A stretch of 64,000 bases of DNA from Palaeococcus ferrophilus DSM 13482 (lineage in GTDB: Archaea; Methanobacteriota_B; Thermococci; Thermococcales; Thermococcaceae), in the NCBI RefSeq assembly GCF_000966265.1, contig NZ_LANF01000011.1:124001-188000 (forward strand), given 5' to 3'. Positions 19,588 to 24,701 of the stretch are shown piece after piece (the first letter of the stretch is position 1; each line of letters starts with the position of its first letter). A program made the translations under genes and the position numbers. Under the pieces are notes generated by a model. That model did not search any database. It saw only the letters and a program-made list of their open reading frames with translations, and was not told the origin of the DNA.

Positions 19588-20582
19588 TTAATTGCTCTTG
19601 AAAAGGTGCATGAAGGCATCCTCCAGCGTCACCCGAGAGGTTTGGACATCCACCACGTTGTAGCCGGACAACAGGGCCAGAACTTCCTTCAAGTTTTCGT
19701 TTTTAAAATAAAGCTGAAGATATGTGAACTCATCATCATACTGAACGTCGATTTTTTGAACAATTCCATTGAAGTCATCAACGCTAACCTTCCCCCTGAT
19801 TTTGGCGAGTATCTTTCCCTCAGCCTTGAGAACCTCGGTCTTTTCAATAATCTCTTTTGGCTTTCCTTCGACTATTTTCTTCTTGTTGAAAAGGAAAACC
19901 CTGTCACATAAAACCTCCGCCTCACTCAAGTTATGCGTGGTTAAAAGCACCGTTATCCTACTATCCCTCGAAAGCTCCAGAATAGTCCTCCACATTTCCC
20001 TTCCGGTGAACACGTCCACGTACACTGTGGGTTCGTCTAAAATGAGAACTTGAGGCTGGAGTATGAAAGGCAAAGCAAGATAAACCTTCTGCCTCATACC
20101 AGCTGAGAGCTTTTGATACCATTCTTTCCGCTTCTTCTCCAAATTTAAAAGCTTCAAGGCATAATCGATCCTCTTCTCTGCTTCTCTACGGGGAATTCCC
20201 CTAGTTCAGCCAGAAACCTAAGATTCTTCTCAACACTCACCCTCCAGTGGAAAAGGCCGAAGAGATCCCTATCTCCTCCAAAGATCGTGAAGATCTTGCC
20301 TCTAATCTTATCGTGCTCGTCTATTGAATCGTACCCGTCTATGTAAAGATGGCCCCTGGTTGGAACCACGAGACCGTTGGCTATCTTGCACAGAGTTGTT
20401 TTCCCAGCACCGTTGGGACCGAGAAGGCCGTATATTTCGTCCTCTTTGACTTTAAAAGTGATGTCCACCAGGGCTGGAATCTCTTCCCGGGGGTTTCCAA
20501 AGAAATCCTTCAGGCTCTTCAAGTCAAACAGGGACTTAATCAGACGAGGATAGTACTTTGTTAGTCCCGTAGCCTCTATCAT
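19588..20582 (-). pseudogene. ABC transporter ATPase interrupted by a frameshift
   Basis: ATPase of an ABC-2/NatA-type exporter, split into two reading frames. The 5' part (20154-20582) holds Walker A GPNGAGKTT and stops early after GEFPVEKQRRG. The 3' part (19588-20157) holds the signature KLSAGMRQKV, Walker B LILDEPT and the H-loop TTHN. At 20198-20201 there is a run of four C on the plus strand; one additional base would restore LGGIPRREAEKRIDYALKLL, the sequence expected in this family. It may be a true inactivating deletion, a sequencing error or a recoding site. The start ATG abuts the stop of the HTH gene. The AT-rich composition differs from the neighbours and suggests acquisition. 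Confidence 0.8.
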
Positions 20583-20858
20583 TTATATCACCCTGATTAC
20601 ATATGTTCTCCCCTTTCTCTCCCTTTCAACTAATCCCTTGCTTTCAAGACTTCTAATGATTCTGCAGGCGTTTACTCTTCCCAACATTTCTCCAAGCTCC
20701 TTTTGGGTCAATTCACCCTTACTCAACAGGACATCAAGAACCTGTTTCTCAGAGTCATTAAGGGAGAGGTTCTGGAGATCTTCCAGGCCAATTTTCACTT
20801 CAAAGAGCATTGTCATCATTCCATTCTCAAATTTTGCCTGTAGTATCTGCACTTCCAT
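20583..20858 (-). CDS. Small winged-helix (MarR-like) transcription regulator
   Basis: 91 aa. The N-terminal third is a short beta-rich segment and the rest is a winged helix-turn-helix (LNDSEKQVLDVLLSKGEL, then TQKELGEML, RIIRSLESKGLVERERKG). Start ATG at 20858 follows GAGGTGGTTCCT; longer upstream readings would overlap the permease. It lies between the permease (10 nt gap) and the ATPase (0 nt gap), so all three are one operon. It probably senses or controls this transporter; its target could be the palindrome between the two divergent operons. Confidence 0.75.
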   Translation of the reverse strand: MEVQILQAKFENGMMTMLFEVKIGLEDLQNLSLNDSEKQVLDVLLSKGELTQKELGEMLGRVNACRIIRSLESKGLVERERKGRTYVIRVI

Positions 20859-20868
20859 AGGAACCACC

Positions 20869-21672
20869 TCATACGTGCCCCAGCGTTCCAAGTTGCTTAG
20901 CCTTGTTAAATCCCCAGAGGAAAGCCAAATAGCCAACAACCAGCATTCCCAGGGTCACAGCCACCATGTTCATTAAGCTGGGCAGGATTTGAGAGAGTGA
21001 GTAGCCTGCACCCATCGTGAGCCTGCCCATCTGGAGGATGTATGTTTCTGGGTGAATCTTTGATAAGGGCCGAAGCCATCCAGGGAGCGCACTTGGCGGA
21101 AAGTAGAGCCCGCTCACGAGTTGGGCAGTTATGTTGAAGAACCAGTTTAGTGGATCCTGGTTCGCCTTGGTGGCGATCCTAAAGCCTGCCGAGAACAGGT
21201 CAAGGGCAAAAATAAGCAGAATACCACTCAAGATTACGACAAGGACGCCCAAGTTAAAGTGGATCTTCAGTCCAAAGAAGAAGACGTAGATGAGGGTTAT
21301 CACAAGGGTTAGCCCCAGATTCCAGAGTATCCTCCAAGCGTTCACCCCCACAAAAATAGCCATTAACGACGCGGGCGAATTGTAGAGGACAGGGAAAACT
21401 CTTCCCAGGACGAATGAGGAGGTGCTGCCCCTTGGAAGGAAGACGAGATTGTGGATTATTGAGCCTATTAGGAGGTAATCGAGGTAGTTTGCGGTGCCGT
21501 ACTGGGAAATGTTAGCGTTGATTGTAACGAGCTTTGCGAAAATTCCGATGAAGAGGATGTTCAAGCCTAAGCTGATGAACTGGAGGATTAAGTCAAAGCG
21601 CCTTGAGAAAAAGGCCTCCCTCTGAATGAAAGCAAACGCTCTGATCGTCCTAATCCCCTGAGTACTGATCAT
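20869..21672 (-). CDS. ABC-2 type exporter permease
   Basis: 267 aa with six predicted membrane helices. The segment GLYFPPSALPGWLRPLSKIHPETY is characteristic of ABC2_membrane permeases used for drug, peptide or polysaccharide export. The ATG at 21672 is preceded by GGGTGACAGG; the longer upstream reading runs through the promoter. First gene of the permease-HTH-ATPase operon. It is transcribed divergently from the peptide/radical SAM genes, so export of, or immunity to, the modified peptide is a plausible role. Confidence 0.82.
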   Translation of the reverse strand: MISTQGIRTIRAFAFIQREAFFSRRFDLILQFISLGLNILFIGIFAKLVTINANISQYGTANYLDYLLIGSIIHNLVFLPRGSTSSFVLGRVFPVLYNSPASLMAIFVGVNAWRILWNLGLTLVITLIYVFFFGLKIHFNLGVLVVILSGILLIFALDLFSAGFRIATKANQDPLNWFFNITAQLVSGLYFPPSALPGWLRPLSKIHPETYILQMGRLTMGAGYSLSQILPSLMNMVAVTLGMLVVGYLAFLWGFNKAKQLGTLGHV

Positions 21673-21749
21673 CCTGTCACCCTGGTATGAGATACACATA
21701 TTACTTATAAACATTGCTTTTATATTTTTATAGAGATTGATTTCAATGA

Positions 21750-21780
21750 ATTTATAAACCTGTTTCACTTGTTTATAAAT
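21750..21780. promoter_or_regulatory. Divergent promoter region with a perfect 10-bp inverted repeat
   Basis: ATTTATAAAC (21750-21759) and GTTTATAAAT (21771-21780) are exact inverted copies, 11 bp apart. Each arm contains a TATAAA-like box. The right arm is well placed for the peptide gene (start at 21853, leader about 50 nt). For the permease a second minus-strand TATA candidate, TTTATAAG, lies nearer at about 21702-21709. The repeat could be paired TATA boxes or an operator for the local HTH protein. Confidence 0.55.
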
Positions 21781-21852
21781 CCGTTACAGTAAAACTTATG
21801 GCTTATTTCAACGAGAATTAAATGCAAAAAACTCGAAGGAGGTGATCTTCCA

Positions 21853-21993
21853 ATGGACATTAAGGTCGAAGAAATGTTCAAGATAGGAGAGTTCGAGCTA
21901 TTAAAGTTGGGAGGTGACATAATTATAGAACGCGGTAGATGTGGAAAGAGACCCTGTGGGCATTCCATTATGTTTATGGAAGAGGAGGAGTGA
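21853..21993 (+). CDS. 46-aa candidate RiPP precursor peptide
   Basis: Short gene missed by length filters. A very strong ribosome site (GGAGGTGATC) lies 6 nt before the ATG. The product has an acidic/hydrophobic leader-like N-terminus (MDIKVEEMFKIGEFELLKLG), then a compact core-like part GRCGKRPCGHS with two Cys four residues apart, and ends in MEEEE. Only 3 nt separate it from a radical SAM gene that carries its own peptide-recognition-like N-terminus. This pairing is the usual layout of sactipeptide, ranthipeptide and related pathways. The modification type, cleavage site and biological role are unknown. Confidence 0.7.
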   Translation: MDIKVEEMFKIGEFELLKLGGDIIIERGRCGKRPCGHSIMFMEEEE

Positions 21994-21996
21994 GAT

Positions 21997-23094
21997 ATGA
22001 AAAAATTTTTATCTTTTTATCCATATTTCCCAAGTTATGTCATTGTTTCCGATGCATACATGACCAACATGCAAACGGGGGAGAGGATACTTCTTCAAAA
22101 TAGCAAGACACGCAATCTTGTCCATTCGATTACAGGAACAACATCTACAAAAGATATTATAACTTCTTTCGGGAAAGACGCTATGGAGGTTCTAAGGTTT
22201 CTATATAGTAGTGGATATTTACAGTTCTCACGAGAGCCAAAAGATGATAGCAAGTTTAATGAATACCACTTACACACTGTTGATATAGAGATAACAAAGA
22301 ACTGCAATCTTAGATGTTTATATTGTTTTAATAACTCTGGGCACTCCCCATATGAGGAGATGAGTGCAGAAGAATGGATAGAAGCTCTCAAATTGCTTAA
22401 ATCCCATGGAGTCAGTGTGGTATCTTTTACAGGCGGAGACCCTTTTGTTAAGAAAGATTTTGACCAAATACTCGATTTTGCCGTTGAGAATTTCCAAGTA
22501 CACATATCAACTAATGGAATACTTCTCGAACAATATCTATCTAAACCAGAAAAATATCCGGAAATCGTAAATTCCCTCAAAAAGGTATGGTTTATTTCAG
22601 TTTCACTTGATTCCATGAATCCTTCTATACATGATGCTTTTAGAGGTCACGGAACACATTCTAGGGTTCTACGAGCGATAATCCTAGCTAGGGCAAATGA
22701 CATACCCGTCGAAATTGGAATAGTGGATCACGTTCTTAACCATGGAGAACAAGAGATAGTAGAATTTGCAAAGAAAATTGGAGCATCTCTTAGTTATACT
22801 GGATTAGAAGTACGGGGGCGTGCTAAGAGATATAACCTTGGATTTCTGGTCCCCGATGATTACCAGGAATCTCGGACAAAAAGCTATGATGAAAAGACTT
22901 TTGAAATTACATGCCCAGTTTTATATGGAGAAATGGCCATTCAGCCGGATGGGTATTTTAAACCTTGTCTAAACCCTCCGGAGTTATTTGAAAAGGTATC
23001 ACCTTTATTCACGAGAGGATTCCATGTCTTCGATTTAAGAGAAAAGTCACCCTCCGAGATACCCTTCTTAAACCTTATCAAAGAGGCTAAATAA
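21997..23094 (+). CDS. Radical SAM peptide-modifying enzyme (PqqE/SPASM-twitch type)
   Basis: 365 aa. The [4Fe-4S]-SAM motif is CNLRCLYC (Cys103, Cys107, Cys110), followed by FTGGDP (144-149) and HISTNG. Residues 1-85 look like a small winged-helix RiPP recognition domain, as found fused in peptide-maturing radical SAM proteins. The C-terminus has CPVLYGEMAIQPDGYFKPC (Cys306, Cys324), a shortened SPASM or twitch domain that may bind an auxiliary cluster. It probably installs a crosslink or other change on the peptide encoded 3 nt upstream. Codon use is AT-rich, unlike ppsA and other neighbours, which points to horizontal acquisition. Confidence 0.85.
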   Translation: MKKFLSFYPYFPSYVIVSDAYMTNMQTGERILLQNSKTRNLVHSITGTTSTKDIITSFGKDAMEVLRFLYSSGYLQFSREPKDDSKFNEYHLHTVDIEITKNCNLRCLYCFNNSGHSPYEEMSAEEWIEALKLLKSHGVSVVSFTGGDPFVKKDFDQILDFAVENFQVHISTNGILLEQYLSKPEKYPEIVNSLKKVWFISVSLDSMNPSIHDAFRGHGTHSRVLRAIILARANDIPVEIGIVDHVLNHGEQEIVEFAKKIGASLSYTGLEVRGRAKRYNLGFLVPDDYQESRTKSYDEKTFEITCPVLYGEMAIQPDGYFKPCLNPPELFEKVSPLFTRGFHVFDLREKSPSEIPFLNLIKEAK

Positions 23095-23110
23095 TGTTAA
23101 TTGTCCTAAC

Positions 23111-23142
23111 CCACACTGTCCTCATATGCACGAGGCATGTGG
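23111..23142 (+). terminator. Candidate hairpin after the radical SAM gene
   Basis: CCACA (23111-23115) pairs with TGTGG (23138-23142), and inside it CCTC pairs with GAGG around a small loop. A T-run does not follow directly, so it may be a terminator or simply a structured 3' end. Confidence 0.3.
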
Positions 23143-23204
23143 GGTATGTTTAGTGTTACGGTACTGGTACCAAAAGAAGGGATACTGCATTAGGTGAAAG
23201 AAAG

Positions 23205-24701
23205 ATGTTCGTCCGCTCGCTTTCCGCTGGGGGCAGCGTGGATGAAATCGGGAACAAGGCCCACCGTCTTTCGATACTCACAAGATACCTCAACGTGCCC
23301 ACGGGCTTCGTGGTGACGACAGGGGCTTACGACCTCTGGAAAGAGGAAGGAAAGCTCCCCCCAGAAGTCGTGGAAGAGGTGAGGGAGTACCTCAACTCCC
23401 CATACCTCCTCGAAGGAAAGTTCCCAGTCGTCGTGCGCAGTTCCGCGACAGTCGAGGATAGCTCCAAGGCAAGCTTTGCAGGAGTTTTTGAGAGCGTTAC
23501 GGGGATAAACTCCTTTGATGGCTTGATCAAAGGAATAGAGAGAGTTTTTGAGAGTGCCAATTCAGAGAGAGTGAGAAATTACCTAGAGCGGATGGGCCTG
23601 AGTGAAGAGCCGAGGATGGCGGCGATAGTCCAGAGGGAGATTAAGCCGGAATTGGCAGGGGTGCTCTTCACCCGCTCCCCGACCGAACCGGAAAAGGCTT
23701 TAGTCGAGTTCGTAAGAGGGAGCGGCGAAGAACTCGTAGGTGGAAAGAGAAGCGCCGAGCGTGTTCTGCTTCCGAGAAACCCGGAAGAGGTTCAGAACGA
23801 GCTCATGAGGGAACTGATTGAAGTTGGACTTGAGGCCGAGTCCCTCTTTGGAAGGCCGCAGGACATAGAGTGGGCCTACGACGGGACGCTCTGGATACTC
23901 CAGTCGAGGGACATAACCGCGCTCGGCCAAAAGAAAGAAGCGAGAGACATAAAAACCGAGAACTGGCACGCCTTAAAGGGCATCCCCGCGAGCCCAGGAG
24001 TGGCGAGGGGTAGAGCGCGGTTTGTGCTCGACGACCAGCCTCCGGAAGAAGCCGAGAGGGTGTTCAAAGATGGAGAGGTTCTCGTCACCTACGTCCTGCA
24101 CGCCGAGCACTACAACCTCTTTAAGAAAGCCTCCGGAATAGTGACGAAGGTGGACAGCATTCTCTCCCACCCGGCGATAATAGCGAGGGAGCTTGGAATT
24201 CCCTGTGTGGTTGGCGTTGACGTTGAGGCGATAAGGGAGGGGGATGAAGTAATCGTTGATGGGAATAGAGGCGCTGTTTACCTCAGGAACCCGAGGGAGG
24301 TGCTGAGAGGCGTTGAACTGTGGAAATCAACCCATCATGAAGATGAAATCGTGAGGGCTCTAAAAGAGGAGTACCTGAGGGCCTTGGAGAGGCTCTCGCC
24401 GGAGGGGCTGGAGAACATCATTGTCAGGGCTTTTTCACTCGTTAGAGAGCTCTATCCCACGGATAAGGAAAAAGCCTTCAACGTTTACTACTTCATAAAC
24501 TGGCTGATGGAGGAAGAAACTCCGAGGCTTTTAGCTAAGCGCTTCGATGTCATTGAAGCTTTGTCCCGCGCGGATAGGGGCGAAAGGCCGAGAACCGATG
24601 AGGAGGCGAGGCTCTTCGAAATCTACCGGCTCCTCAAGGCCTTCATAAACTACACGGACAAGAGGGTTAGGGACATCCCAGAGATGCTGTTCGGAATTTA
24701 A
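23205..24701 (+). CDS. PEP-synthase-like protein lacking the PEP-binding barrel
   Basis: 498 aa. The N-terminal half is the ATP-grasp nucleotide-binding domain of PEP synthase/PPDK (VVVRSSATVEDSSKASFAG, 75-93; GRPQDIEWAYDGTLWILQSR). Next comes the phosphohistidine domain with His322 in SILSHPAIIARELGIP. Instead of the PEP/pyruvate TIM barrel there is a helical C-terminal region of about 150 aa that I do not recognise. It could therefore load phosphate from ATP onto His322 and pass it to an unknown acceptor, in the manner of rifampin phosphotransferase, glucan dikinase or pyrimidine/nucleoside-type dikinases. Start is ATG 23205, with no strong ribosome site. Monocistronic. Confidence 0.78.
   Translation: MFVRSLSAGGSVDEIGNKAHRLSILTRYLNVPTGFVVTTGAYDLWKEEGKLPPEVVEEVREYLNSPYLLEGKFPVVVRSSATVEDSSKASFAGVFESVTGINSFDGLIKGIERVFESANSERVRNYLERMGLSEEPRMAAIVQREIKPELAGVLFTRSPTEPEKALVEFVRGSGEELVGGKRSAERVLLPRNPEEVQNELMRELIEVGLEAESLFGRPQDIEWAYDGTLWILQSRDITALGQKKEARDIKTENWHALKGIPASPGVARGRARFVLDDQPPEEAERVFKDGEVLVTYVLHAEHYNLFKKASGIVTKVDSILSHPAIIARELGIPCVVGVDVEAIREGDEVIVDGNRGAVYLRNPREVLRGVELWKSTHHEDEIVRALKEEYLRALERLSPEGLENIIVRAFSLVRELYPTDKEKAFNVYYFINWLMEEETPRLLAKRFDVIEALSRADRGERPRTDEEARLFEIYRLLKAFINYTDKRVRDIPEMLFGI

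What the first reader, a model, noticed from the sequence alone, without database searches (positions are those of the whole stretch)
21853..23094. Candidate archaeal RiPP pathway: 46-residue peptide plus radical SAM enzyme
Seen: a tiny gene with an unusually strong ribosome site encodes a 46-aa peptide ending in a Cys-x4-Cys core (RCGKRPCGHS), 3 nt ahead of a radical SAM gene with CNLRCLYC, a leader-recognition-like N-terminus and a two-Cys twitch/SPASM remnant. Known: this gene order marks ribosomally made, radically modified peptides (sactipeptides, ranthipeptides, epipeptides). Inferred: a thermostable modified peptide made by Thermococcus. No peptide of this sequence is known to me in that class.
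Basis: partly seen in the sequence, partly recalled or inferred. Interest (0 to 1): 0.87.

Follow-up and report, generated by a model that had tools for sequence, protein, structure and literature searches.

The report
Swappable modified-peptide cassette in Thermococcus relatives
A heat-loving archaeon carries a tiny gene for a two-cysteine peptide beside the enzyme that probably chemically modifies it, and this pair is one of several interchangeable peptide-enzyme cassettes that relatives keep behind the same switch and usually next to the same export pump, though the enzyme copy read here is broken by a single extra base.

Summary
The peptide (21853-21993) and radical SAM (rSAM) gene (21997-23094) are real. 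Both are conserved (76% and 78% identity) in one other Thermococcaceae genome of 94 (L034), with dN/dS 0.09 and 0.07. The "two-Cys SPASM remnant" is a misreading: a one-base insertion near 23093 truncates the window's enzyme. L034's intact 399-aa copy ends in a seven-Cys SPASM-like tail, which the window still encodes in the next frame. The neighbouring ABC ATPase is also frameshifted, so this copy may be inactive.

The main new result is wider. The promoter block upstream (21700-21811) recurs in 17 of 94 Thermococcaceae genomes. In most sites a short, usually Cys-containing precursor gene starts about 50 nt downstream (15 of 22 sites; background 1%), normally followed by an rSAM gene. A characteristic ABC transporter usually lies divergently beside it. 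The precursor-maturase pair changes from locus to locus: GIAGN/Cys-rich, Cys-every-fifth (NCBIfam CefA), CGGGGG, Cys-less YVPPTGG plus PqqD-like, and RCGKRPCGH here.

Best reading: a RiPP (modified-peptide) cassette of a new precursor type in a modular chassis. RRE domain, crosslink chemistry and activity are unproven. Literature search was limited: one key 2019 paper on archaeal peptides could not be read.

The parts
21700..21811 (+). Conserved promoter/operator block: attacttataaacattgc..., two TTTATAAA boxes, repeated GTTTCA/GTTACAG motifs, ending GTTACAGTAAAACTTAT at 21799
   Evidence: Near-identical block aligned upstream of unrelated precursor genes; pattern found in 17 of 94 Thermococcaceae genomes, 0 hits with the reversed control; peptide start 53 nt downstream
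21838..21847 (+). Shine-Dalgarno GGAGGTGATC of the precursor gene
   Evidence: read directly
21853..21993 (+). 46-aa precursor peptide MDIKVEEMFKIGEFELLKLGGDIIIERGRCGKRPCGHSIMFMEEEE; probable leader with EFELLKLGG, core RCGKRPCGH
   Evidence: Conserved in L034 (76%); dN/dS 0.085; no other match in 115 genomes of the phylum better than E 0.01
21997..23094 (+). Radical SAM maturase gene, truncated reading frame (365 aa), CNLRCLYC
   Evidence: Pfam PF04055 E 2e-29; 78% identical to the intact L034 copy; frameshifted near 23093
23093..23197 (+). SPASM-like C-terminal tail of the maturase, in the +1 frame after the frameshift (NNVNCPNPHCPHMHEACGVCLVLRYWYQKKGYCIR)
   Evidence: Matches the in-frame tail of L034
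20869..21768 (-). ABC-2 type permease (type A); true start probably about 21672 by homology
   Evidence: Pfam PF01061; type-A loci carry a divergent rSAM cassette in 12 of 16, type-B paralogues in 0 of 14
20583..20939 (-). Winged-helix regulator (TrmB/MarR-like), candidate regulator of the shared promoter
   Evidence: Pfam TrmB E 1e-8; present in the same operon in L034, L086, L090
19588..20582 (-). ABC ATPase, split by a one-base deletion into two ORFs (142 + 189 aa)
   Evidence: L034 homologue is one 342-aa ORF
23205..24701 (+). PPDK_N + PEP-utilisers protein, 498 aa; frequent neighbour, probably not part of the cassette
   Evidence: PF01326, PF00391; also present without any cassette in G041, G029, G023; host-like GC 54%

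Best explanation
The 46-aa peptide is the precursor of a ribosomally made, radical-SAM-modified peptide (RiPP), and the adjacent enzyme is its dedicated SPASM-type maturase. In the working form, best seen in L034, the shared promoter is controlled by the winged-helix regulator of the divergent transporter operon. The enzyme's N-terminal domain binds the peptide's leader, probably the EFELLKLGG stretch. A SAM-derived radical then crosslinks the core RCGKRPCGH, most likely by thioether bonds from Cys30 and Cys35. The type-A ABC transporter exports the product. The pair is one of several interchangeable cassettes carried behind one conserved promoter in Thermococcaceae. The window's copy has a frameshifted maturase and a frameshifted transporter ATPase and is probably decaying. 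Shown by sequence: genes, conservation, shared promoter, cassette replacement, frameshifts. Inferred: leader binding, regulation, crosslink type, export, and biological role (competition or signalling).
For: Peptide and enzyme conserved together with strong purifying selection. Same promoter block in 17 of 94 genomes, with a short precursor ORF starting at +47 to +56 with a good ribosome site in 15 of 22 sites, against 1% at random positions; sites in related genomes are not independent. Most sites with room are followed by an rSAM gene. Two of these loci hold members of the NCBIfam RiPP precursor family CefA above its cut-off, and the phylum's only over-cut-off CefA hits are in these two loci. 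Socket rSAMs score best against peptide maturases CefB, Clo7bot, TIGR04463, PapB. Type-A transporter tied to rSAM cassettes, 12/16 versus 0/14 for the paralogue (p 2e-5). Best solved relative of the enzyme is the sactisynthase SkfB, E 4e-15. Intact relative has a SPASM-like Cys set, C-x12-G-x4-C then four Cys and a final Cys. Cassette GC 38% against 55% for the window, as expected for an exchanged cassette.
Against: No named family is reached: the enzyme is far below every NCBIfam cut-off, and heme, MoaA and mycofactocin models score in the same range as peptide-maturase models. No RRE could be demonstrated. The peptide has only two Cys, unlike most other socket peptides. Only two genomes carry this cassette type. 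No protease was identified in the window cassette. The window copy is frameshifted.
Confidence: 0.8

Rival explanations
1. The peptide is a scaffold consumed to make a small redox cofactor (as PqqA for PQQ or MftA for mycofactocin), not an exported modified peptide.
For: The enzyme's core domain also scores against mycofactocin and PQQ maturase models; small single peptide.
Against: No downstream cofactor-pathway genes; patchy distribution (2 of 94 genomes); placed behind a promoter that otherwise serves Cys-rich exported-type peptides, normally beside an exporter.
Confidence: 0.08
2. The small ORF regulates the rSAM gene (leader peptide or attenuator), and the enzyme works on a small molecule such as heme or another cofactor.
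For: Heme b synthase and MoaA models give similar scores to the core; short spacing.
Against: Peptide conserved at protein level, dN/dS 0.085; Cys-rich peptides occupy the same slot in other loci, including a curated RiPP family.
Confidence: 0.06
3. In this genome the whole cluster is a dead remnant: maturase and ATPase are pseudogenes and no product is made. (This concerns activity in this genome and is compatible with the best explanation.)
For: Two one-base frameshifts in two of the cluster genes, while most other large ORFs in the window look uninterrupted (inspection only); other loci of this kind are also fragmented (L083, L090, L131, L132, L145).
Against: The peptide and the tail after the frameshift remain well conserved, so loss would be recent; sequencing or assembly error cannot be excluded without reads.
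Confidence: 0.55
4. Chance ORF next to an unrelated rSAM gene.
For: Short ORFs are common in raw sequence.
Against: Conserved with low dN/dS in L034, perfect ribosome site, and the fixed distance to the promoter seen for other precursors.
Confidence: 0.01

Closest known systems
CefA/CefB, Cys-every-fifth RiPP system (NCBIfam NF038108/NF038107)
   Same: Occupies the same promoter socket beside the same type-A transporter in L086 and L133; short Cys peptide followed by SPASM rSAM
   Different: The window peptide does not match CefA, has 2 Cys instead of regular Cys repeats, and its enzyme belongs to a different rSAM branch
SkfB (sporulation killing factor sactisynthase) and AlbA (subtilosin maturase)
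   Same: SkfB is the best solved relative of the enzyme; AlbA is the best model for the enzyme's tree neighbour L011; small precursor beside rSAM, ABC export
   Different: Far below the family cut-offs; precursor unrelated; archaeal; SPASM Cys spacing differs
StsB family sactipeptide maturases (NCBIfam NF045574)
   Same: The match to the window enzyme covers residues 19-307, including much of the N-terminal domain
   Different: 79 bits against a cut-off of 625
Thermococcus islands of secreted zincin-type proteins noted by Makarova et al. 2014 (PMC4158269)
   Same: Variable Thermococcus islands proposed to act in conflict or signalling; several socket loci here also carry M1- or DUF4932-type secreted metallopeptidases
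   Different: The section read describes secreted proteins and a zincin peptidase, not rSAM-peptide cassettes or a shared promoter; whether the same loci are meant was not checked

Membership tests
Radical-SAM-modified RiPPs (sacti-, ranthi-, epipeptides and kin) | short precursor gene adjacent to the maturase and conserved with it | tested here: met
   Pair conserved in L034, none elsewhere in the phylum
Radical-SAM-modified RiPPs (sacti-, ranthi-, epipeptides and kin) | radical SAM core with CX3CX2C | tested here: met
   CNLRCLYC; PF04055 E 2e-29
Radical-SAM-modified RiPPs (sacti-, ranthi-, epipeptides and kin) | SPASM/twitch auxiliary-cluster domain | tested here: inconclusive
   Intact L034 enzyme has seven C-terminal Cys beginning C-x12-G-x4-C, but non-canonical spacing of the rest and no Pfam hit for the tail; truncated in the window
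Radical-SAM-modified RiPPs (sacti-, ranthi-, epipeptides and kin) | RRE (PqqD-like) leader-binding domain | tested here: inconclusive
   No profile or fold match
Radical-SAM-modified RiPPs (sacti-, ranthi-, epipeptides and kin) | installed crosslink in the core peptide | not testable with these tools
   needs mass spectrometry
CefA/CefB (NF038108/NF038107) | precursor matches NF038108 above cut-off | tested here: not met
   No NCBIfam match for the window peptide; no match in the window's genome
SkfB equivalog (TIGR04403) | score above curated cut-off (300 bits) | tested here: not met
   66.9 bits for the window enzyme, 69.6 for the L034 copy
Heme/MoaA/cofactor rSAM families | score above curated cut-offs | tested here: not met
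   MoaA 85 bits vs 325; AhbD 72 vs 500

The most novel reading that the evidence does not exclude
Thermococcaceae carry a modular peptide-antibiotic or signalling platform: one conserved promoter block, usually with a divergent regulator and exporter, acts as a socket into which unrelated precursor-maturase cassettes of at least six kinds are exchanged between species; the window holds a cassette type belonging to no named precursor or maturase family.
Probability: 0.6. Interest if true: 0.78.

Novelty: new variant of a known kind. Interest (0 to 1): 0.64.

Why it matters
RiPP pathways in archaea are predicted widely but hardly characterised: a 2025 study (PMC12144867) counts two experimentally validated archaeal products before it, both lanthipeptides from Haloarchaea, and names rSAM-type clusters as unexplored. 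Here a conserved promoter gives a simple handle to find more precursor genes in hyperthermophiles, several of which match no named family. Because related genomes carry different cassettes behind the same switch, the system makes cassette exchange and its role in competition between neighbouring strains directly testable, and thermostable maturases may be useful enzymes.

Tried and rejected
Searching the window rSAM in 84,980 species genomes by conserved stretches gave only L034 and a weak bacterial match; viral contigs gave nothing; plasmid hits were generic rSAMs below 30% identity. A structure model of the whole enzyme from two sequences was too poor to use (pLDDT 45). The N-terminal model had no PDB match. 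hhalign between the N-terminus, the PqqD-like protein of L123/L129 and the N-termini of other socket enzymes was uninformative. The PEP-utiliser-like gene was considered as a third pathway gene and rejected: close homologues stand without any cassette in G041, G029 and G023. Weak hits of the peptide profile in other genomes were taken as chance, being short matches, mostly inside longer ORFs. Makarova et al. 2019 (mBio) on archaeal antimicrobial peptides is not held, so prior description there cannot be ruled out.

Full report
Checking the observation. The 46-aa ORF at 21853-21993 has a perfect ten-base ribosome-binding match (GGAGGTGATC, 21838-21847) and ends three bases before the radical SAM ORF at 21997-23094. 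The enzyme carries CNLRCLYC and a Pfam radical SAM domain (E 2e-29). A search of 94 Thermococcaceae genomes found one other close copy, at 78% identity, the same locus as L034, contig LGET01000061.1, 'Thermococcales archaeon 44_46'. There a 47-aa peptide MDVKVEETFKVGDFELLKLGGDIIIERGRCGKKPCGHTIFAFEEQNE precedes the enzyme. Between the two genomes dS is about 1.8, and dN/dS is 0.085 for the peptide and 0.072 for the enzyme, so both are real protein genes. The peptide profile has no other convincing match in 115 genomes of the phylum.

Correction to the observation. In L034 the enzyme is 399 aa long and ends in KYVNCPNPKCPHMHEVCGVCLVLRYWYQKKEYCVR. The window encodes the same tail in the next frame after one inserted A (GCTAAATAATGTTAAT against GCTAAATACGTTAAC). 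The 'two-Cys remnant' is therefore a truncated SPASM-like domain: C306-x12-G-x4-C324, then four Cys and a final Cys, with spacing that departs from the textbook SPASM pattern. The ABC ATPase at 19588-20582 is also split by one missing base. Most other large ORFs of the window look uninterrupted (inspection only), so decay of this cluster is plausible, but a sequencing error is not excluded.

The wider system. The PEP-utiliser-like gene downstream and the ABC transporter upstream led to other loci. In these, the same transporter and the same intergenic region stand before other short peptides and other rSAM genes. The promoter block (window 21700-21811) aligns over about 110-150 bases across loci whose coding genes are unrelated. 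A 28-base pattern from it matches 17 of 94 genomes with no match for the reversed control. In 15 of 22 sites a start codon with a good ribosome site and a short ORF lies 47-56 bases downstream, against 1.1% of random positions. Sites in related genomes are not independent, so the nominal p value overstates the case, but with seven of ten it would still be about 1e-12. Several loci show gene loss or fragments (L083, L090, L131, L132, L145).

The precursor types. (1) xEFxIIExGSxEGIAGN leaders with 9-13 Cys: L083, L090, L122 (variant), L125, L128, L172, L177. (2) MEWIVEP leaders with Cys about every fifth residue: L086, L133; longer peptides of these two loci match the curated RiPP family CefA. 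(3) MKIEILKVENGKI with CGGGGG: L124, L126. (4) Cys-less EYVPPTGGE-like peptides with an rSAM and a separate PqqD-like protein (Pfam PqqD E 3e-4): L123, and probably L129. (5) a 31-aa CWKC peptide with two rSAM genes: L175. (6) the window and L034 type, RCGKRPCGH. Representative socket enzymes of types 1 to 3 score best against peptide-maturase families (CefB, Clo7bot, TIGR04463, PapB). Most precursors share a short hydrophobic-charged stretch near the N-terminus (EFEIIE, KIEILK, EWIVEP; EFELLKLGG in the window). I take it as the leader contact, by inspection only.

The transporter as a control. Permeases fall in two groups: type A (75-84% identical to the window's) and type B (about 55-62%). 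A divergent rSAM cassette is present in 12 of 16 type-A loci with enough sequence, and in 0 of 14 type-B loci (p 2e-5). The four type-A exceptions lack the cassette, and some have truncated permeases.

The enzyme. It belongs to no named family: all NCBIfam hits are far below cut-off, and cofactor-making models score in the same range as peptide maturases. The best solved relative is the sactisynthase SkfB (E 4e-15). In a tree of Thermococcaceae rSAMs it stands apart from the CefB-like clade and next to L011/L017 (support 91/96). L011, and the homologous locus L012, have a tiny Cys peptide beside the enzyme (MDPHYVVQAPNGKGCAACSICAICLADGPVPDFEGAGIYGLFGLF; none was seen in L017), and L011's enzyme is most like AlbA. 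An RRE could not be shown: no PqqD match, no fold match, and a thin alignment.

Mechanism. Shown by sequence: the gene pair, its conservation, the shared promoter, the changing cassette, the two frameshifts, and AT-rich composition of the cassette (38% against 55%). Inferred: control by the winged-helix protein in the transporter operon, leader binding by the enzyme's N-terminus, radical crosslinking at Cys30 and Cys35, and export by the ABC transporter. I hold the RiPP reading at 0.8 and a thioether product at about 0.45.

What is known. Archaeal rSAM-type RiPP clusters have been predicted in surveys without characterised products (PMC12144867). Makarova et al. 2014 described variable Thermococcus islands of secreted proteins with a zincin peptidase and proposed a conflict or signalling role (PMC4158269); several socket loci here also carry M1 or DUF4932 secreted proteins, but I did not check whether they are the same islands. 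A 2021 Thermococcales module paper does not mention rSAM or RiPP. Makarova et al. 2019 on archaeal antimicrobial peptides could not be read. Text searches for Thermococcus with rSAM and RiPP terms found no description of this system in the open library, which is incomplete.

Verdict. Novelty: new variant of a known kind.

Noticed in passing
L011:1166-1303, L012 (minus strand), L016:1121-1201: Other small Cys peptides beside rSAM genes outside the promoter socket: MDPHYVVQAPNGKGCAACSICAICLADGPVPDFEGAGIYGLFGLF with an AlbA-like enzyme, and 26-aa MKRKLKIKKLTNAGCYHWNSHDSVGL with another rSAM. Neither peptide matches an NCBIfam family.
   Followed up: partly
L177 (G077:C1, about 130.6 kb): A promoter socket with a peptide containing IIIIACCCCGGGG but no rSAM; an ABC transporter and three enzymes of unknown type (369, 434 and 277 aa) follow.
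   Followed up: no
L123 and L129: Cys-less peptides (EYVPPTGGE..., YVPPVGGD...) with an rSAM and a stand-alone PqqD-like protein near the same type of promoter: possibly a different modification chemistry.
   Followed up: no
L080-L090, L122, L123: In many relatives the island or the PEP-utiliser-like gene lies between purQ-like and purL-like genes, which looks like a preferred insertion site; in the window it lies next to phosphoenolpyruvate synthase instead.
   Followed up: no
window:23205-24701: PPDK_N plus PEP-utilisers protein with about 130 C-terminal residues matching no Pfam domain and no PEP-binding domain, in 13 of 94 Thermococcaceae genomes; function unclear.
   Followed up: partly
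window:2730-4049: An ORF resembling an IS605/TnpB-type transposase by eye; not tested.
   Followed up: no
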